From contig JAFXSQ010000056.1 of NCBI GenBank assembly GCA_017525525.1, positions 1 to 47,529 of the forward strand: a DNA stretch of 47,529 bases, read 5' to 3'. A model generated the notes under the pieces. That model saw only the letters and a program-made list of their open reading frames with translations. It did not search any database and was not told the origin of the DNA. Positions 26,198 through 33,907 of the stretch are shown one piece after another; position 1 is the first letter of the stretch, and each line of letters opens with the position of its first letter. The stretch comes from Lachnospiraceae bacterium (GTDB taxonomy: Bacteria; Bacillota; Clostridia; Lachnospirales; Lachnospiraceae). Position numbers and translations under genes: made by a program.

Positions 26198-27439
26198 CTA
26201 CTCTGTACTGCAGTGCACCGTTCTTCCCCATGACATGGTTATCTTGGGCATATCTATGATTATCCAAAGCACCGGCACCGACATGGCGCACCTCTCGTCA
26301 ACCTCGGGAGCGCAGCCGTCCGTTAGGATAACCAACGCGTTAGGCAGCTTATCACTCATATACTCAGCCATGTAGTCGAAAATGACCTGAAAGCTCGTGC
26401 CTCCGCCGCCGGCCGGCGTTATCCCATTAAAATCCTCCTCGCTTGAGAATTCTACCGGTTCGGTTATGCCTGCATCAAAGAACGAAATCATACCCCTGCA
26501 GCCATTAATCTCGTTGATGACATTCATAACCTCGGTATAAAGCCTGGTAAGCTGCTTGTCAGAAATTGAGCCCGAGGTGTCCACACAGAACCATATATCC
26601 TGCATTGCCTCACGCTCATATGTGTTCTCCGCCGGCAGCATGTAGGGCGAATCGACAAATCTCCTGTCCGGAGGAGCAAAGGAGTAGTCGGTATAATACA
26701 CATAAGAATTCACGAAATCACGCAGCAGCTCCTTCCACCTGAGCTTTGCTTCAAGCGCTCTCTCTTCAAGAAGCTTTCTTACCGATTGCGGAAATATGCT
26801 TTCTCCGTAGCCCTTTGCAAGAATTGTCTCTATCTCGCTCTCAAAGCGGTCCTCATCCGACTGACTGACACTTATCAATTCCCACACATCATGGTTATCC
26901 AAGGTATCATAATCCTCCGGCGAATCCGATGACATGCCTCCTCCCGGCTTTCTGACCGGAATCTGCGGATTCTTAAGCAGCTCATAGTAGACCTCCTCCG
27001 CGCTGAAATTACAGCCCTCCAGCCCCGAGGGCGTAAGATGTATAGCCGGCTCTCCGTCCACTATAATATCCGTCTCTCCCATGCACTTTAATATATTTGA
27101 ATTAACAACTATATCACAGGCTATGTTAAAAAGGAGATGAAGCTTTCCCTTTCCCCTCTCCGGATGCTTTAATACACAGTGCATAACCTCATGCATCAGC
27201 ACAAAGCTTAGCTCCTTATCCGAAAGACGGTTCATAAAATCGGGATCAAAAACTATCCTCCTCATGTCCGTGCAGGCTGTCTCACACCTTGCCAGCGCAA
27301 AATCCATGCGAATCAAAAGCTCGCCGAAAAACGGCTGCTTTTTCAGCATAAGTGTCCTTAGGTAAGTCAGCCTGTCAATCATAGCCCTTTTGTCAGGAGC
27401 GCCCGCAGGCGCTTTGCCCTTAATAATCTGCTCACTCAT
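26198..27439 (-). CDS. DUF2201-type metallopeptidase-like/VWA protein
   Basis: 413 residues in two parts. Residues about 15-115 form a putative zinc-metallopeptidase-like domain with HEVMHCVLKH (HExxH at 83-87). Residues about 280-410 form a VWA domain with an intact MIDAS: DTSGS at 287-291, Thr in GGGGTSF near 348, and TDG near 373. No signal peptide, so both act in the cytoplasm. The ATG at 27439 (GGTGA upstream) is preferred to a TTG directly on the previous stop. Starts 6 nt after the MoxR gene. MoxR ATPases commonly work with a VWA protein as adaptor; proteolysis is unproven for this family. Confidence 0.88.
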   Translation of the reverse strand: MSEQIIKGKAPAGAPDKRAMIDRLTYLRTLMLKKQPFFGELLIRMDFALARCETACTDMRRIVFDPDFMNRLSDKELSFVLMHEVMHCVLKHPERGKGKLHLLFNIACDIVVNSNILKCMGETDIIVDGEPAIHLTPSGLEGCNFSAEEVYYELLKNPQIPVRKPGGGMSSDSPEDYDTLDNHDVWELISVSQSDEDRFESEIETILAKGYGESIFPQSVRKLLEERALEAKLRWKELLRDFVNSYVYYTDYSFAPPDRRFVDSPYMLPAENTYEREAMQDIWFCVDTSGSISDKQLTRLYTEVMNVINEINGCRGMISFFDAGITEPVEFSSEEDFNGITPAGGGGTSFQVIFDYMAEYMSDKLPNALVILTDGCAPEVDERCAMSVPVLWIIIDMPKITMSWGRTVHCSTE

Positions 27440-27445
27440 AAGCAA

Positions 27446-28549
27446 TCACCCCATTTTTTGAACAGCCTTCAGCCAGTCCATATAGGACGGAACCTTCATA
27501 AGGCGCATCTTGATGCTCTCCATGCCCTTAAGATCGTTGAAAAACAGCATCTGAAAATCCTCGGGGAAGCCCTTCGCGTACTTGCATATATTGTTTAACT
27601 CCTGCACGGTTATATCCTTTGTATGTCTTGCAACGTATACCGTAAGGGAGCTTATCACCGCGTGAAGCACGTCCGACATCCCCGGAAGATTAGGCTCTTC
27701 ACCCCTGACTATCCTTTCGGTATCGGGAAGATACTTGTACATCGCGCACCAGCCCTCAAACTCCAGAGCTATCCCTGTGCCTATATCTCCTGCTATGTCG
27801 TTGTGAAGCTCGGACATATCCTCATACAGGCCCTCACAGGCATAAAGCAGGTCGCTTACGCTCTTCCAGGATCTCGGAGTGGGAAATGCTATCTCGTCGC
27901 TCTCGCTCTTCGCATAGAGCTTTGAATTATCGTATGATAAAAAGCCGAGGACATACGGATGGATGTTTTCGATAATAGCCCAGGCCTTGAAGCTGTCATA
28001 ATCCGGCTGCACATTAAAATGCCTGAAGCGGTTCATAAGCTCCGGAGCCATGCGCGTCTCATACTTTGAGGTACCTCTCGCCGGATTTGCAGCCGCAATA
28101 ACAAATGAATTCTCGGGGAAGCTGTGCGTCCACGCCTTTCTGTCAAGGATAAGCTGCAAGGCGGCTGCCTGAACCGCCGGAGAAGCCTTGTCCAACTCGT
28201 CGAAGAAGTAGATGTAGTATGAACCGGCCCCATCGTCCGCATATATCTCAGGCCTTAACCACACCGTAGTTTCCCTGTCCTCACTTGCAACGGGTATGCC
28301 TATCAAGTCGGTAATCGTACAACTTGTAAGACGCACATCCACCACCTTTACGGGCTTGCCGAGGTTCTCCGTAAGCCTGTCCGCCACCTGGTACACAGCA
28401 GAGGACTTTCCTACTCCCGTAGGGCCAAACATCATAATCGGACGGATGTCACGGCACGGGGTTCCCGCGCCGATCATCCTCTCGTAATATCTTGATATAC
28501 AATCCACGGTATTTCCGGTGGATATTCCGGGTACATTTATTAATGCCAT
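27446..28549 (-). CDS. MoxR-family AAA+ ATPase
   Basis: 367-residue cytoplasmic AAA+ protein that probably remodels a target together with the VWA protein next to it. Walker A is FGPTGVGKSS (about 41-50), Walker B YFFDELDKAS (about 114-123), sensor 1 FVIAAANPA, and an arginine-containing APELMNRFRHF box follows. All look intact. ATG at 28549 follows GGAGGTG by 7 nt; the in-frame GTG three codons earlier is part of the ribosome site. It lies 45 nt after the helicase gene. Confidence 0.9.
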   Translation of the reverse strand: MALINVPGISTGNTVDCISRYYERMIGAGTPCRDIRPIMMFGPTGVGKSSAVYQVADRLTENLGKPVKVVDVRLTSCTITDLIGIPVASEDRETTVWLRPEIYADDGAGSYYIYFFDELDKASPAVQAAALQLILDRKAWTHSFPENSFVIAAANPARGTSKYETRMAPELMNRFRHFNVQPDYDSFKAWAIIENIHPYVLGFLSYDNSKLYAKSESDEIAFPTPRSWKSVSDLLYACEGLYEDMSELHNDIAGDIGTGIALEFEGWCAMYKYLPDTERIVRGEEPNLPGMSDVLHAVISSLTVYVARHTKDITVQELNNICKYAKGFPEDFQMLFFNDLKGMESIKMRLMKVPSYMDWLKAVQKMG

Positions 28550-28564
28550 AGTATTCACCTCCGT

Positions 28565-28591
28565 AAAAAGACTCTTCGTTCAGAATGACAC
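28565..28591. repeat. Repeat remnant between helicase and moxR genes
   Basis: Minus strand GTGTCATTCTGAACGAAGAGTCTTTTT, ending at the ACGGAGG ribosome site of the next gene, as the remnant at 17112-17145 does before tagD. Confidence 0.5.
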
Positions 28592-28594
28592 TTA

Positions 28595-31500
28595 CTATTT
28601 CATTGCCTCAAGCTCACCGTCTATCCTTTCAAGCTCGGCTTTGAGCTCCTCTATCTCGTCATCATATGGGTTACCGACTGCAATCTCGGTTTTGGTAAGC
28701 TCAAGTCTCTTGTTGAGTGTCTCAACCTGCTTCTCGTTGCTCTCAATTCTCTTGGATATGCCGTTCAAGGTGGCATCGATTGCCTGCGTGCATGACACCG
28801 GCGTCTTGTCTGTCATGTCGATCTTGTAGGAGCCGCCGCCGGTGCGCCTTACGATTATATAAGGCTTGTCCGGAAGCATGTTCGCAGGGAGAAATACCTT
28901 AAAGTACATGTAGCTGTTGAAGAAGGTCTCCTGCTCACGCATTACATTACCCTTCAGAGCCCTTAAGAGCTTCTCACCGAAGACCTCACGCTCTGACACC
29001 GGCATGGTCTCCCTGTGCTCCCTGTAGTAACTGCGGTCAGCCTTTAAGGAAGCTATTCTGTACTCAGTCTTCTTAATCTCCGTGGGAAGGTTTGAAAGCT
29101 CGTTGTTTAAGTCATAGAGCTCTCTCTTCCTCTGGCGCTGAGCTATCCTGCTGCGCTCTAACTTATTTGCGGCTATTACGCGCTGCTTTATAAGCGGATT
29201 GCCTACTGCGATGGCCTTAACCTCTGAGCAGTCAAGCTCAACCTTGTCTATGTCGGACTCGGTTCTGTGGAACTCGGACATAGAGCCCGCAAGGAACGAA
29301 CCGATAAAGCGCTGCTTGTTCTCCAAAATCTGCCATACATAAGCATCAAAGCTCCTGGTGGTTATATATCTGAACTGGAATACCTCCTTGTTCAGATTGC
29401 CCTGGCGTATAAGGCGCCCCTCTCTCTGTGTGAGATCCGAGGGCCTCCAGGGCGCGTCAAGATGATGAAGCGCGATAAGGTGCTTCTGTACATTTACGCC
29501 CACACCGAGCTTCTGGGTTGAGCCTATCATAACCTTAATCTCACCGGAATCAAGCATGTCCAAAAGCTTATTCTTCTTCGCCTCGGTAGTGCCCTCGTGG
29601 ATAAATGCTATCTCCTTTGCGGGTATGCCCTTAGCTATAAGGTACTTTTTAAGCTCATCGTATACATTGAATTCGTTCTTGGGAGTAGAGTAGTCGCAGA
29701 ATACTATCTGCGTTGCATCGGGGTAAAGCTTGTAGAGCTCCCACACCTTCTCGGCGCAGACTCCGGCCTTACACTCGTGCTGCGCTATCACGGCAGTGCC
29801 GTCCACATGCCTTATGTCTAAGGCGGCCTTTCGTCCGTCGGTAACTACCTTAAGAATATTGTCTTCACTCATGCTCACTGCTCTTGTCCTTATGGCATCC
29901 GTGCGCTTAACTATCAGCTCGTTGTAAGCAAGATGATAAGGAGTTGCCTCCACCGGAACGTCCGTATAGCCGTTAAACTCAGGCACATCCATATCTTCCT
30001 TCGAAATATGGTAGAAATCACACACCTCGCCAAAAAGAGCCATAAGCTCCGGCAGGTTGTGATAGTGACTTATGCGCGTCATGTAACGGAAGCTGTGCGA
30101 GTTCACATCTATCTCGAACTGGGTTGTGGAGCTTCCGAAGGTGTTCGCCCACTCACCGAAGCTTGATATAAGACAGGCATCCAGGGTATCGGGCTGAAGA
30201 TAGGTCTGGAACACGAACAGGTCTGCGATAGAATTCGTGAGCAGGGTTCCCGTTGCGAATACTATCTTTCCGCCTTTTTTCTGCACAAACCTTACCTTGT
30301 CCATGAGAAGATCCGCCTTCTTGCTGCCTACGCCGTGAAGCCCGACAACATTCTCAAGCTTTGTGTCCATGGTTATATTCTTGTAGTTTTGGCACTCGTC
30401 GACAACGAGAGTTGTTATTCCGAGCTTGTCAAAGCATAAGCTGTCGTCGCCCTTGTATTCCTTAAGCACCTTCTCCTTACGCTTCTTTAAGCTTTCGTAC
30501 TTATTTTTATAAGCCTCTCTCTCCCACGGGCTGCCGCAGCTGTTGCTCTTTGCAAATGCCTCGCTGATTTCCTCATCGAACTTCTTCTTGTAGTACTGAT
30601 TCGACATGCAAAGCATATCGAACTTGCTGTAGGCTATGTAGATGGCAACATATTTCCCATGCTTTATCTTATCGATTATCGCCTGCTTCTCTCCGGGCTT
30701 AAAATCGTCCGGGGATATGGTCAGTATCTTGTCCTGAGGATAGAGCGTCTTGTGGGCATTTACCGTTCCCGCAAATGTTGCGTTGGGCACTACTATCATA
30801 TTCTTCTTTGAAATGCCCATCCTGTAAAGCTCATGCACGGCTATGATATAGCAGAAGGTCTTGCCGCTTCCCACATCGTGACAGAGAACCGAGTTGGGAT
30901 TAAGGATGATGCGCATTGCGGCATCCCTCTGGTGCTTGTAGGGTGTAACCGCCGGATTCATGTCCGAGAGTGAGAGCATGTCTCCGGAATAATGCGGCAT
31001 GGCGAAAGCGTAAGTATTGCAATACTCATTTACAAGCTCTTCTATCACCTTCGGGTTCAAGGAGAGCCACTCCTGGAACTTCCCGAGTATCTCATTCGCC
31101 TTGCTCTGCGCGAGCATCGTCTCCTCCATGTTCACGACCAGCTTAAAACCGGACTTGGTGTCTGCGGGAACCTCGTCCTTAACCTTGGTCGTCACTGCGT
31201 TAAGCAGATTCTCTATAAGCTTTACCGCGGAAACCCTCTTGGTTCCGTATGTGAAGTTGTTGAGCACCGCCATGGGCTTATAGTACATCTTAAGCTTCCA
31301 CTTGCCCGCAGCCCTGTAGACCTGAGGTATAACCCTTAATTCAAGCAGCCACTGTACAAAGTGCGCGATATGCTTTGTGTATATCCACGAGGAGCCGAGC
31401 TTCATATGTATATCGAAGGCCGACGGTCTGGCCGGCATGCGTGACTTAAGCAGCGCTATATTCGCTTCGAACCTCTTATAATACTTGTCAAGCTTCTCAG

Positions 31501-31885
31501 CCTCCGTAAGAAGGTCCTTGATATTGCCCCGCACGTACTCTGCTTCCAAAACCCAGTCGCCGTACTCGTCACGGTTTGCCACATAAGCATCAGGCTTCTG
31601 GAAGATAGTCTTCCCGCCGTGAAGCTCAAGTATCTCATCCTCACTCATAGCTGCAAGATGGGCCATGTACCTTACATCCACTTTTCCCTTATCGTTGATG
31701 CAGCGCATGAGAGCATCCTCTGCGGTACAGCTTCCCCGTGTCGCGGGATCAAAGCTCTCCTGCTTCTTCTCCGTTTCCTTCTCCATCGGGTTAAGATCGG
31801 TAAAGCCTTCGAAAAGGTCGGTTATAACCGTGCCTCTTACCATGCTCATCGAGTTTAACGAACGTAAATCAGTCAAATTCATCAT
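28595..31885 (-). CDS. Stand-alone SNF2-type DNA helicase related to mobile-element methylase-helicases
   Basis: 1096-residue superfamily 2 protein. Helicase motifs: TPYKHQRDAA (Q-like), Walker A HDVGSGKTF near 336, motif II VVDECQNYKN near 493 (DECQ instead of DEAH/DESH), motif III ATGTLLTNS near 543, LGVGVNVQ, and motif VI LTQREGRLIRQGN near 850. The whole stretch from about 200 to 950, including the FTYGTKRVSAVKLIENLLNA and SEVKAIAVGNPLI segments, resembles the helicase half of very large methylase-SNF2 proteins of conjugative elements, but the methylase half is absent. A coiled-coil-rich tail closes the protein. GGAGGTG lies 4 nt before ATG-ATG (31885/31882). First gene of the helicase-MoxR-VWA cluster. 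Confidence 0.88.
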   Translation of the reverse strand: MMNLTDLRSLNSMSMVRGTVITDLFEGFTDLNPMEKETEKKQESFDPATRGSCTAEDALMRCINDKGKVDVRYMAHLAAMSEDEILELHGGKTIFQKPDAYVANRDEYGDWVLEAEYVRGNIKDLLTEAEKLDKYYKRFEANIALLKSRMPARPSAFDIHMKLGSSWIYTKHIAHFVQWLLELRVIPQVYRAAGKWKLKMYYKPMAVLNNFTYGTKRVSAVKLIENLLNAVTTKVKDEVPADTKSGFKLVVNMEETMLAQSKANEILGKFQEWLSLNPKVIEELVNEYCNTYAFAMPHYSGDMLSLSDMNPAVTPYKHQRDAAMRIILNPNSVLCHDVGSGKTFCYIIAVHELYRMGISKKNMIVVPNATFAGTVNAHKTLYPQDKILTISPDDFKPGEKQAIIDKIKHGKYVAIYIAYSKFDMLCMSNQYYKKKFDEEISEAFAKSNSCGSPWEREAYKNKYESLKKRKEKVLKEYKGDDSLCFDKLGITTLVVDECQNYKNITMDTKLENVVGLHGVGSKKADLLMDKVRFVQKKGGKIVFATGTLLTNSIADLFVFQTYLQPDTLDACLISSFGEWANTFGSSTTQFEIDVNSHSFRYMTRISHYHNLPELMALFGEVCDFYHISKEDMDVPEFNGYTDVPVEATPYHLAYNELIVKRTDAIRTRAVSMSEDNILKVVTDGRKAALDIRHVDGTAVIAQHECKAGVCAEKVWELYKLYPDATQIVFCDYSTPKNEFNVYDELKKYLIAKGIPAKEIAFIHEGTTEAKKNKLLDMLDSGEIKVMIGSTQKLGVGVNVQKHLIALHHLDAPWRPSDLTQREGRLIRQGNLNKEVFQFRYITTRSFDAYVWQILENKQRFIGSFLAGSMSEFHRTESDIDKVELDCSEVKAIAVGNPLIKQRVIAANKLERSRIAQRQRKRELYDLNNELSNLPTEIKKTEYRIASLKADRSYYREHRETMPVSEREVFGEKLLRALKGNVMREQETFFNSYMYFKVFLPANMLPDKPYIIVRRTGGGSYKIDMTDKTPVSCTQAIDATLNGISKRIESNEKQVETLNKRLELTKTEIAVGNPYDDEIEELKAELERIDGELEAMK

Positions 31886-31903
31886 AGCGCACCTCCTATC
31901 ATC

Positions 31904-31982
31904 GAGCAAGTCGACGTAGCCGAAACCTGCTCGCGCGCGGGGCACCGGTCAGCTTCAGCTGACATCTACATTTCGGTGCCCC
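31904..31982 (-). promoter_or_regulatory. Hairpins in the leader of the helicase gene
   Basis: Minus strand has GGGGCACCG / CGGTGCCCC (9 bp, 31982-31939) enclosing GTCAGC-TGAA-GCTGAC, then GAGCA / TGCTC (31932-31904), 17 nt before the GGAGGTG ribosome site. I see no clear promoter here. Confidence 0.55.
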
Positions 31983-32066: not shown

Positions 32067-33800
32067 TTATTTTACTTTTTCATTGATTTCCGAAAAAAGC
32101 GTGGCAATCATCTTCTTGGTCTCCTCCAAGGCATCGTCAACACTGACCTTGTTTGTGAACCTCTTATCTCTTGTCACAATCTCGACCTCACCGTTTACCG
32201 CGTTCTTAGGTCCTATAACTACCCTGACCGGAACGCCCAGGAGATCCGCATCCGCAAGCATCGCTCCGACGCTCACCTTCCTGTCGTCATAGATAACCTC
32301 TATGCCCGCATCAAGCATCTCCTTATATAATCTGTCACCGATAGACTTGCACTCCTCCTTGTCCACGCGCATGCAACAGATGTGCACCTGCCAGGGGGCG
32401 ATGGATATCGGCCAGATCGGGCCGTAATCGTCGCGCTTTGCCTCGCACACCGAAGCCGCAAGTCTGCCAACGCCTATTCCGTAGCAGCCCATGATCGGTG
32501 TCTGCACCTCACCGTTCTCATCGGTGTAGGTCATGCCCATGGACTTGCTATACTTGGTTCCGAGCTGGAAGATATTGCCCACCTCGATACCCCTGCTTAT
32601 ATGTATGGTCTTCTTGCCGCAGCACGGACATATGCCGCCTATCTGTATCTTAGCCACATCCACATACTCAACCTCTCCCACATCACGCTTGATGTTGAGA
32701 CCTGTGTAGTGGTAGTCAACTTCATTTGCTCCCGCGCACAGGTTCTCTATGCCGCAGAGAGACTTGTCGTAAATGATGGTGCAGTTCGCATGCTGTCCGT
32801 AAGGACCGCAGAAGCCTGCAACCAGACCGCTTTCCTCGGTGATAACTGCAGGGTGAACCTTCTCGCCGAGCAGGTTGGTGAGCTTCGTCTCATTTACCTC
32901 GTAGTCGCCTCTCAAGAAGACAACCACGTACTCGTCATTCATGTTCTTCTGATATATAACGGCCTTGCAGGACTCCTCAACCTTGCTGTTAAGGAAGGTG
33001 CATACCTCCTCGATGGTCTTGCAGCCCGGAGTGTGAACCTTGGTCAGCTCTCCCGCAGGCGCGCAGCCGCTGTTGTCAACTGTTGTGTCGGCAGCCTCCA
33101 TATTCGCGCTATAGCCGCACTCGTCGCAGAGAACTATGGAGTCCTCGCCGGCATCTGTAAGAAGCATGTACTCGTGGGACACGCTTCCGCCGATCATGCC
33201 CGAGTCGGACTTAACCGCAACCGTCTCCGGTATGCCTACACGGGCAAATATCCTGTCGTAGGCCTTCGCCATCCTGTCGTAATACTGTTCCAAATCCTCC
33301 TGCGAGGTGTGGAAGGAATAAGCATCCTTCATGGTAAACTCACGAACTCTTATAAGTCCGGCGCGCGGTCTTGCCTCGTCCCTGAACTTGGTCTGTATCT
33401 GGTATATGGAGAACGGATACTTGGCATAAGACTGTCCGTACTCGCGCACAAGCTGTACCGCAGCCTCCTCATGTGTCATGCCGAGCACCATGGATGTGCC
33501 GTTCCTGTCCTCGAAGCGAAGCAACTCCTCGCCGACGCTGGTAAACCTTCCCGACTCCTCCCACAGAGCGCCCGGAAGAACCACCGGGAACATGACCTCC
33601 TGGCAGTCGACCGCATCCATTTCCTCTCTGATTATATTCTCAATCTTAGTCGTTATCCTCTTCATCGGGGGATAAAGAGAATATATGCCGTTTGCGACAT
33701 ACTTGATGTACCCGCCCTTTACGCAAAGCGCATGGCTCTCTATAACGCAGTCCGACGGACGCTCCTTGAAGCGCTCGCCTACAAGATTAGCTAATTTCAT
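32067..33800 (-). CDS. proS: Prolyl-tRNA synthetase, bacterial type
   Basis: Charges tRNA-Pro. 577 residues with the long bacterial architecture: class II motif 1 (GIYSLYPPMKRITTKIENIIREEMD), motif 2 (TKFRDEARPRAGLIRVREF near 150), the inserted editing domain (about 225-385), motif 3 (GCYGIGVGRLAASV near 440) and the C-terminal anticodon-binding domain (WQVHICCMRVD...). ATG at 33800 has AGGAGG 11 nt upstream; the longer in-frame start lacks support. Own promoter at 33908-33937. No T-box sequence is seen in the roughly 100-nt leader. Confidence 0.97.
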   Translation of the reverse strand: MKLANLVGERFKERPSDCVIESHALCVKGGYIKYVANGIYSLYPPMKRITTKIENIIREEMDAVDCQEVMFPVVLPGALWEESGRFTSVGEELLRFEDRNGTSMVLGMTHEEAAVQLVREYGQSYAKYPFSIYQIQTKFRDEARPRAGLIRVREFTMKDAYSFHTSQEDLEQYYDRMAKAYDRIFARVGIPETVAVKSDSGMIGGSVSHEYMLLTDAGEDSIVLCDECGYSANMEAADTTVDNSGCAPAGELTKVHTPGCKTIEEVCTFLNSKVEESCKAVIYQKNMNDEYVVVFLRGDYEVNETKLTNLLGEKVHPAVITEESGLVAGFCGPYGQHANCTIIYDKSLCGIENLCAGANEVDYHYTGLNIKRDVGEVEYVDVAKIQIGGICPCCGKKTIHISRGIEVGNIFQLGTKYSKSMGMTYTDENGEVQTPIMGCYGIGVGRLAASVCEAKRDDYGPIWPISIAPWQVHICCMRVDKEECKSIGDRLYKEMLDAGIEVIYDDRKVSVGAMLADADLLGVPVRVVIGPKNAVNGEVEIVTRDKRFTNKVSVDDALEETKKMIATLFSEINEKVK

Positions 33801-33907
33801 TTCTGATGTTTCCTCCTGATCCCTTGCATGAGATCTCCGCCACAATCAACCGACGAAGACCTTATGCCTTTGCTTTTATTCACAGCCTGAAGCTGCGCAT
33901 GTTCTGT

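What the first reader, a model, noticed from the sequence alone, without database searches (positions are those of the whole stretch)
26198..31885. Three-gene cluster: stand-alone SNF2-type helicase, MoxR AAA+ ATPase, metallopeptidase-VWA protein
MoxR-VWA pairs are known as chaperone-like and conflict-system modules. Here the pair is in one transcription direction with a 1096-residue DNA helicase of a type normally fused to a DNA methylase on conjugative elements. The helicase has lost the methylase half and has DECQ in motif II, the MoxR and VWA catalytic motifs are intact, and gaps are 45 and 6 nt. No integrase, relaxase or phage gene is nearby, so it looks like a recruited or defensive machine: DNA-translocating sensor plus ATPase plus VWA effector. 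That role is inference.
Basis: partly seen in the sequence, partly recalled or inferred. Interest (0 to 1): 0.8.

Follow-up and report, generated by a model that had tools for sequence, protein, structure and literature searches.

The report
Conserved helicase–MoxR–peptidase operon in Clostridia
Three neighbouring genes (a DNA-tracking motor, a ring-shaped ATPase and a predicted protein-cutting partner) form a fixed, sporadically spread unit in gut and rumen bacteria that looks like an undescribed defence machine, though its function is untested.

Summary
In detail: a stand-alone SNF2-type helicase, a MoxR ATPase and a metallopeptidase-VWA protein, minus strand, motifs intact. In 78 of the 80 best MoxR relatives of a genome scan, helicase and VWA genes flank MoxR in the same order and strand, most often overlapping by 4 and 14 nt. 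In reverse, 391 class genomes gave 7 helicases of this type (window included); 6 have both partners adjacent, the seventh stops at a contig end; none of 23 lower-scoring loci examined does. Triad helicases lie on one side of a fully supported branch, opposite DarB-like fused or phage-type ones; the three proteins' distances correlate at 0.87–0.90. The unit is sporadic, reaches Bacilli, Erysipelotrichia and one actinomycete, and has many WYL regulators nearby (24 in 0.80 Mb of flank, about 0.5 expected). Broader defence-gene enrichment was not clear against a control. I read it as a probable anti-invader system: a new variant of MoxR–VWA conflict systems with an SNF2 motor as third subunit. Function is inferred. 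The window copy belongs to a deep, rare subgroup.

The parts
28595..31945 (-). Stand-alone SNF2-type helicase/translocase (1116 aa from GTG 31945; 1096 aa from ATG 31885)
   Evidence: model mean pLDDT 83.9; best PDB fold matches are SNF2-family remodellers, E 1.6e-14
30956..31762 (-). N-terminal region (about residues 62-330, approximate) shared with methylase-fused DarB-type helicases, where it lies between methylase and motor
   Evidence: The three-row triad helicase profile matches the fused or phage-type homologues from model position 22-49 onward; three fused homologues tested have Eco57I methylase upstream
30857..30880 (-). Helicase motif I (Walker A) HDVGSGKT
   Evidence: VGxGKT in all 64 aligned triad helicases
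30389..30400 (-). Helicase motif II DECQ (DEAH in most relatives)
29399..29428 (-). Helicase motif VI QREGRLIRQG
27446..28558 (-). MoxR-type AAA+ ATPase (370 aa; ATG alternative at 28549)
28403..28426 (-). MoxR Walker A GPTGVGKS
   Evidence: GKS in all 81 aligned rows
26198..27445 (-). Putative zincin-like metallopeptidase fused to a VWA domain (415 aa)
   Evidence: model mean pLDDT 85.8
27164..27193 (-). Presumed zinc motif HEVMHCVLKH (HExxH...H)
   Evidence: Glu kept in 71 of 76 rows; His at 85, 89 and 94 at least 95% conserved in 76 rows
26567..26581 (-). VWA MIDAS-type motif DTSGS
   Evidence: D289, S291, S293, T350, D376 at least 95% conserved in 76 rows

Best explanation
The three genes encode one machine, inherited and exchanged as a cassette: an SNF2 double-stranded-DNA translocase, a MoxR AAA+ ring, and a VWA protein carrying a zinc metallopeptidase. 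The most likely role is protection against invading DNA. The SNF2 subunit binds and moves on foreign or abnormally protein-loaded DNA and acts as the sensor. The VWA domain, through its metal-dependent adhesion site, docks substrates or the helicase to the MoxR ring. ATP hydrolysis by MoxR then remodels the target and hands it to, or unlocks, the peptidase, which cuts invader proteins on the DNA or an abortive-response target. In a subset of copies a WYL-domain regulator encoded near the operon probably controls expression. Shown here: the conserved operon, conserved catalytic motifs, correlated divergence, a predicted SNF2 motor fold, and WYL enrichment. Inferred: complex formation, translocase and protease activity, substrate, anti-invader function.
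For: Conserved order with overlap-type spacing: helicase to MoxR -4 nt in 47 of 80, MoxR to VWA -14 nt in 44 of 80. Reverse adjacency 6 of 7 (window included) against 0 of 23. Distance correlations 0.90, 0.90, 0.87 over 61 loci, 0 of 999 permutations as high; 0.79, 0.77, 0.72 without the window subgroup. Triad helicases one side of a branch with SH-aLRT 100 (33 against 18 rows, quick search). Motifs: helicase 64 rows, MoxR 81, VWA 76. SNF2 fold. Sporadic: 9 of 397 family genomes with triad-type MoxR (over 460 bits), 7 of 391 class genomes with triad-type helicase, own genome counted in both. WYL: 24 proteins in 21 of 80 loci, about 0.53 expected at the 0.66/Mb of 41 genomes; Pfam finds WYL in 21 of the 32 clustered proteins and 9 of 129 immediate neighbours. 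GmrSD by Pfam in L097 and L138, by profile similarity also in L093 and L136; a PD-(D/E)XK protein directly after the VWA gene in L136. Published MoxR-vWA systems are proposed counter-invader systems (PMC7159879, PMC12839542; passages only).
Against: No experiment. The PADLOC tally near the operon (33 families in 131 proteins) is not clearly above the control (19 families in 131) except for WYL (4 against 0). 59 of 80 loci show no such WYL gene in the DNA held; none of the 10 window proteins scanned is one. The same WYL type with PcfJ-like and DUF2779-like genes also occurs in G001 and G015, which lack the triad. Relatives of all three proteins occur in phages, 75 PHROG families match among 131 second/third neighbours (no control run), and the phage MoxR-vWA pair has been proposed to work in virion assembly (PMC7824862), so a role for, not against, mobile elements is possible. 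Five of 76 VWA proteins lack the catalytic Glu. Correlated distances could partly reflect shared host ancestry. The WYL profile was built from part of the set it was counted in.
Confidence: 0.5

Rival explanations
1. It is cargo that helps mobile elements: a DarB-like protection or DNA-processing module, kept on decayed integrative elements, in which the SNF2 motor shields or remodels incoming DNA and MoxR-VWA assembles or clips element proteins.
For: Closest helicase relatives are methylase-helicase proteins of phages and other elements (DarB is a virion antirestriction protein, PMC5512222, passages). MoxR-VWA relatives are common in phages (472 records with a VWA match) and occur on plasmids (85 records). 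L141 sits by serine recombinases; PcfJ-like genes are 3 of 129 immediate neighbours; 75 PHROG families match among 131 further neighbours.
Against: Only 2 of 54 viral-contig MoxR relatives have the helicase in the DNA held, and one of these (L142) is itself interrupted by an element. Only 1 of 80 genome loci has a serine-recombinase-like ORF in the DNA held (tyrosine recombinases and transposases were not searched as such). Of the 25 of 152 Pfam families shown for immediate neighbours most look like ordinary chromosomal genes.
Confidence: 0.25
2. A house-keeping style nucleoprotein remodeller: SNF2 plus MoxR-VWA clears stalled or cross-linked proteins from the host's own DNA (a bacterial analogue of DNA-protein-crosslink proteolysis).
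For: A metallopeptidase paired with a DNA translocase fits that chemistry (inference). NAD-dependent DNA ligase genes are 3 of 129 immediate neighbours, directly downstream in L097, L105, L138; DNA polymerase/PHP-like genes lie in the flanks of 4 loci (clustered by similarity; Pfam support for 2 of 129 immediate neighbours).
Against: Sporadic distribution (7 of 391 class genomes) and WYL association fit accessory genes better.
Confidence: 0.15
3. An ordinary MoxR-VWA chaperone pair that matures only the helicase, which has an unrelated function; peptidase domain non-proteolytic.
For: MoxR-VWA pairs such as RavA-ViaA and NorQ-NorD are described as assembly chaperones (abstract starts in the listing). 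Five of 76 VWA proteins lack the catalytic Glu while the His positions stay at least 95% conserved.
Against: 71 of 76 keep the Glu of HExxH.
Confidence: 0.1

Closest known systems
MoxR-vWA centred ternary conflict systems (VMAP-ternary, iSTAND type; PMC7159879, PMC12839542, passages read)
   Same: MoxR AAA+ plus vWA plus a third component encoded together; proposed counter-invader role; peptidase effectors occur
   Different: Third component here is an SNF2 translocase as a near-invariant operon member, not VMAP or iSTAND; vWA is fused to a DUF2201_N putative zincin; hosts found are mainly Clostridia. In the passages read SWI2/SNF2 appears as one of several variable effector modules
Phage MoxR + metallopeptidase-vWA pair (jumbo phage group 2.2, PMC7824862, passage read; phrog_1297/phrog_1314)
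   Same: Same two domain architectures, strong profile matches
   Different: No helicase in the DNA held for 52 of 54 viral loci; proposed there to act in virion assembly
DarB-type methylase-SWI2/SNF2 polyvalent proteins (phage P1 DarB; PMC5512222, passages read; phrog_10089)
   Same: Same SNF2 motor family and same region before the motor
   Different: No methylase found, about 1100 aa stand-alone, own side of a fully supported branch, tied to MoxR-VWA in 78 of 80 and 6 of 7 loci
SNF2-containing defence systems DISARM (DrmD) and BREX (BrxHI/II)
   Same: SNF2-type helicase subunit; weak matches to the C-terminal motor part (1.3e-10 at best)
   Different: The other nine window proteins scanned match none of their components; the NCBIfam DrmD cut-off is far from met (34.4 of 610 bits)

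Membership tests
VMAP-type MoxR-vWA ternary system | MoxR and vWA genes adjacent | tested here: met
   80 of 80 loci
VMAP-type MoxR-vWA ternary system | VMAP (or iSTAND) third component | tested here: not met
   The third conserved gene is an SNF2 helicase; Pfam reported no such domain in the ten window proteins scanned
DarB / methylase-helicase polyvalent protein | Adenine methylase fused N-terminal to the SNF2 motor | tested here: not met
   No methylase in Pfam for the window helicase; three fused relatives tested show Eco57I
DarB / methylase-helicase polyvalent protein | Homologous SNF2 motor and preceding region | tested here: met
   phrog_10089 E 3.5e-191 over residues 72-1115
Phage metallopeptidase-vWA/MoxR pair | DUF2201_N + DUF2201 protein with MoxR partner | tested here: met
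DISARM or BREX | Full DrmD/BrxH match and cognate partner genes | tested here: not met
   Only partial motor matches, far below the NCBIfam cut-off, no partner among the ten proteins scanned
Anti-phage defence system | Protection on challenge | not testable with these tools
   Needs experiment
Anti-phage defence system | Enrichment near known defence genes | tested here: inconclusive
   WYL enriched; other PADLOC families not clearly above control
RavA-ViaA / NorQD chaperones | MoxR-VWA complex acting on a metalloenzyme target | not tested
   No such target gene was looked for; complexes could not be modelled

The most novel reading that the evidence does not exclude
A new class of immune machine in which a DNA-translocating SNF2 motor is the invader sensor and licenses a MoxR-powered zinc protease: proteolytic rather than nucleolytic immunity against incoming DNA, carried as a three-gene cassette through Clostridia and beyond.
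Probability: 0.3. Interest if true: 0.85.

Novelty: new variant of a known kind. Interest (0 to 1): 0.66.

Why it matters
It turns a three-gene guess into a defined operon family with a reliable sequence signature, present in what the record titles show as isolates rather than MAGs (for example Lachnospiraceae NE2001, XBB2008, AB2028, YSD2013; Anaerotardibacter muris). If defensive, it would link DNA translocation to ATP-driven proteolysis, and would give the phage and plasmid MoxR/metallopeptidase-VWA pairs a testable functional context.

Tried and rejected
Empty-site test: the flanking proS and DUF2225 genes were sought in 37 genus genomes and eight neighbourhoods compared. The two genes are not together in any of these eight (several are short contigs), so no empty site could be compared: inconclusive. 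General defence-island enrichment: PADLOC on 131 second/third neighbours (same strand, 130-750 aa; 131 of 225 collected) against 131 of 160 proteins, either strand, from 20 regions at round positions of four genomes: only WYL stands out. PADLOC on immediate neighbours at the laxer 1e-10 also gave mad3 2, AriA 2, mad8 2 and one retron-type RT, but mad3 and RT matches occur in the control too. Immediate neighbours scanned were 129 of 130 (L123:1-331 left out; L090 was excluded beforehand). PHROGs on the 131: 75 families at 1e-10, no integrase named among the 25 shown. WYL as an obligate partner: rejected; in 26 genomes a copy of at least 330 bits is in 5 of 12 triad-bearing and 2 of 14 triad-free genomes. 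Helicase inactivated by DECQ: rejected. Plasmid home: VWA relatives on 85 plasmid records are all under 60% identity, the 20 listed 25-30%. PDB sequence searches gave only short weak stretches for the VWA protein and one SNF2 remodeller for the helicase. Promoter scan: no promoter-like site between proS and the helicase start; 11 in the region against 7.0 (sd 2.7) in shuffles: uninformative. A fold search of the VWA model could not be run.

Full report
What is there. On the minus strand the window holds three abutting genes: helicase 28595-31945 (ATG at 31885), MoxR 27446-28558 and metallopeptidase-VWA 26198-27445. Upstream is proS (32067-33845); downstream, convergent, a DUF2225 gene and then a mecA-type gene. 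Pfam gives DUF2201_N + DUF2201 for the VWA protein, AAA_5 for MoxR and Helicase_C for the helicase. PHROGs gives strong, nearly whole-length matches for all three, among them phrog_10089 'DarB-like' for the helicase. The window is the whole of contig C9 of a 3.19 Mb, 75-contig genome.

Is it a unit? In 78 of 80 the helicase lies directly upstream and in 80 of 80 the VWA gene directly downstream. The exceptions are L090 (helicase about 5 kb downstream of the VWA gene) and L108 (contig end). Spacing is overlap-type: -4 nt in 47 and -14 nt in 44. The 65 helicases not cut by a contig end run from 475 to 1360 aa, median 1162, so a few are shortened. Because these loci were chosen by MoxR, I ran the reverse test. 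In 391 genomes of the class, 64 helicase matches reached E 1e-300, in 61 genomes. Seven score above 1250 bits, the window among them; the rest are at or below 1127, mostly in frames over 2000 aa. Of the seven, six have MoxR and VWA directly adjacent (one of them, L331, with the helicase split by a stop) and the seventh (L329) stops at the contig end. Of the 23 lower-scoring loci returned, none has either within 1.5 kb. Of 80 near genomes searched, own included, four carry all three together: G000, G007, G019 and G032. In 397 family genomes nine, own included, have a triad-type MoxR (over 460 bits); eight show the helicase beside it, the ninth (L203) is held only as a 2.8 kb stretch.

Relatives of the parts. 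In a tree of 51 motors, 33 triad helicases and 18 fused or phage-type ones fall on opposite sides of a branch with SH-aLRT 100 (quick search, unrooted). The window copy groups with L061, L062 and L063 in a four-row subgroup (100), with 53-58% identity to them and 35-39% to the others. That subgroup shares a MoxR variant (YFFDELDKA, AANPARG). Anaerotardibacter muris (Actinomycetota) lies among rows of Clostridia, and of the 80 loci 74 are Clostridia, 2 Bacilli, 2 Erysipelotrichia, 1 Bacillota without class and 1 Coriobacteriia: I read this as horizontal spread. Three fused relatives tested carry an Eco57I methylase upstream of the motor, so the triad helicase corresponds to the half after the methylase. 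Whether the methylase was lost or never present is open; a few helicases on the other side also look stand-alone (L039 without methylase in Pfam; L333, L348, L352 by frame length).

Are the parts active? In 64 helicases the VGxGKT of Walker A is invariant, motif II is mostly DEAH with DECQ in a few including the window, and the core residues of motifs III, V and VI are kept. MoxR Walker A (GKS) and Walker B (DE) are in all 81 rows. In 76 VWA proteins the presumed zinc-binding histidines and the MIDAS residues are at least 95% conserved, and the catalytic Glu is present in 71; L116, L119, L122, L125 and L129 lack it. The helicase model (mean pLDDT 83.9) matches SNF2 remodellers bound to nucleosomes, with target-normalised TM-scores up to 0.76 and about 14% identity; that such motors translocate on double-stranded DNA is recalled knowledge. 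The VWA model (mean pLDDT 85.8) puts HExxH in a long helix.

Co-inheritance. Pairwise distance matrices over 61 loci correlate at 0.90 (helicase-MoxR), 0.90 (helicase-VWA) and 0.87 (MoxR-VWA), with 0 of 999 permutations as high; without the window subgroup 0.79, 0.77 and 0.72. Host ancestry may contribute.

Neighbourhood. The strongest recurrent neighbour is a WYL-domain regulator: 24 proteins in 21 of 80 loci (18 loci at 300 bits or more), in 0.80 Mb of flanking DNA, where 0.53 would be expected from 68 WYL matches in 41 genomes, own included. The profile was built from part of the same set; Pfam independently finds WYL in 21 of the 32 proteins of the cluster (8 members match leucine-rich repeats, chained in by the clustering) and in 9 of 129 immediate neighbours. 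Other recurrent genes: a roughly 680-aa AAA protein (15 of 84 loci, two of them the same contig), PcfJ-like, DUF2779, metallophosphatases, a NAD-dependent DNA ligase directly downstream in L097, L105 and L138, and GmrSD-type restriction genes in L097 and L138 (Pfam), L093 and L136 (profile similarity). G001 and G015 have the WYL-PcfJ-DUF2779-like set without the triad. Of the 25 of 152 Pfam families shown for immediate neighbours, most look like ordinary chromosomal genes. PADLOC families other than WYL are not convincingly above the control.

Mobility. L141 holds the triad on a contig with two serine recombinases and, by my reading of the translation, a spoVAD end; L142's helicase is cut by a recombinase/mobilisation element, also by my reading. 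One of 80 genome loci (L112) has a serine-recombinase-like ORF. Viral contigs mostly have MoxR, usually with VWA, alone: 2 of 54 with the helicase.

How it works. I judge it a multi-subunit anti-invader machine: SNF2 motor as DNA-engaging sensor, VWA as adaptor, MoxR ring as power stroke, zincin as effector. Each link between parts is inference from families. Published analyses treat MoxR-vWA ternary systems as conflict systems (PMC7159879, PMC12839542, PMC10910872) and the phage metallopeptidase-vWA/MoxR pair as a virion assembly aid (PMC7824862); of these I saw the passages returned by term search. DarB and the methylase-SNF2 dyad are from passages of PMC5512222. Passages of PMC10853773 did not bear on it.

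Novelty. Searches of the open library for MoxR+VWA+SNF2+helicase, DUF2201/MoxR, vWA+MoxR+anti-phage+metallopeptidase, MoxR+von Willebrand+phage defense+helicase, DUF2201 alone, and MoxR+defense system+WYL+helicase listed no paper whose title or abstract start describes this operon (for DUF2201/MoxR 20 of 310 papers were listed), and the passages I read describe no SNF2-MoxR-metallopeptidase-VWA operon. Subscription papers are mostly not held. I file it as a new variant of a known kind: it fails the third-component test for VMAP/iSTAND ternary systems and the methylase test for DarB, but is built from the same parts.

Noticed in passing
window 32067-33845: proS is of the bacterial, editing-domain type; only 5 of 37 genus genomes (own included) have a close full-length copy (77-94% identity in the other four), the rest only weak partial matches or none, so proS itself looks horizontally exchanged.
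   Followed up: partly
L059 11103-13527 (G000:C66) and G000:C3 around 47057-49098: The same genome carries two further, more distant MoxR-VWA pairs; no second helicase of this type was found in it, and the C66 pair has the reverse order, VWA then MoxR.
   Followed up: no
PHROGs phrog_1314; many phage records: The phage family that matches the VWA protein is labelled 'HNH endonuclease' in PHROGs and in many of the 40 phage records listed, although Pfam reads our member as metallopeptidase + VWA; probably a mislabel.
   Followed up: partly
L058 11527-14154 (G032:C104): The helicase of this relative lacks nearly the whole second motor domain in frame, while MoxR and VWA are full length; real deletion or assembly artefact unknown.
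   Followed up: no
L142 3651-8793: A serine-recombinase element with Mob-like and ParB-like genes (my reading of the translations) appears to interrupt a triad helicase gene.
   Followed up: no
L097 12734-14689, L105 11958-13922, L138 12675-14561: A NAD-dependent DNA ligase gene lies directly downstream of the VWA gene on the same strand in three related loci.
   Followed up: partly
G001:C11:2005-3060 and G015:C17:4338-5393: A WYL regulator of the operon-associated type sits with PcfJ-like and DUF2779-like genes in genomes without the triad, suggesting a broader recurring gene island.
   Followed up: partly
L116, L119, L122, L125, L129: VWA proteins of these loci lack the catalytic Glu of HExxH while the His positions stay at least 95% conserved over the 76 rows: possible pseudo-peptidases.
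   Followed up: no
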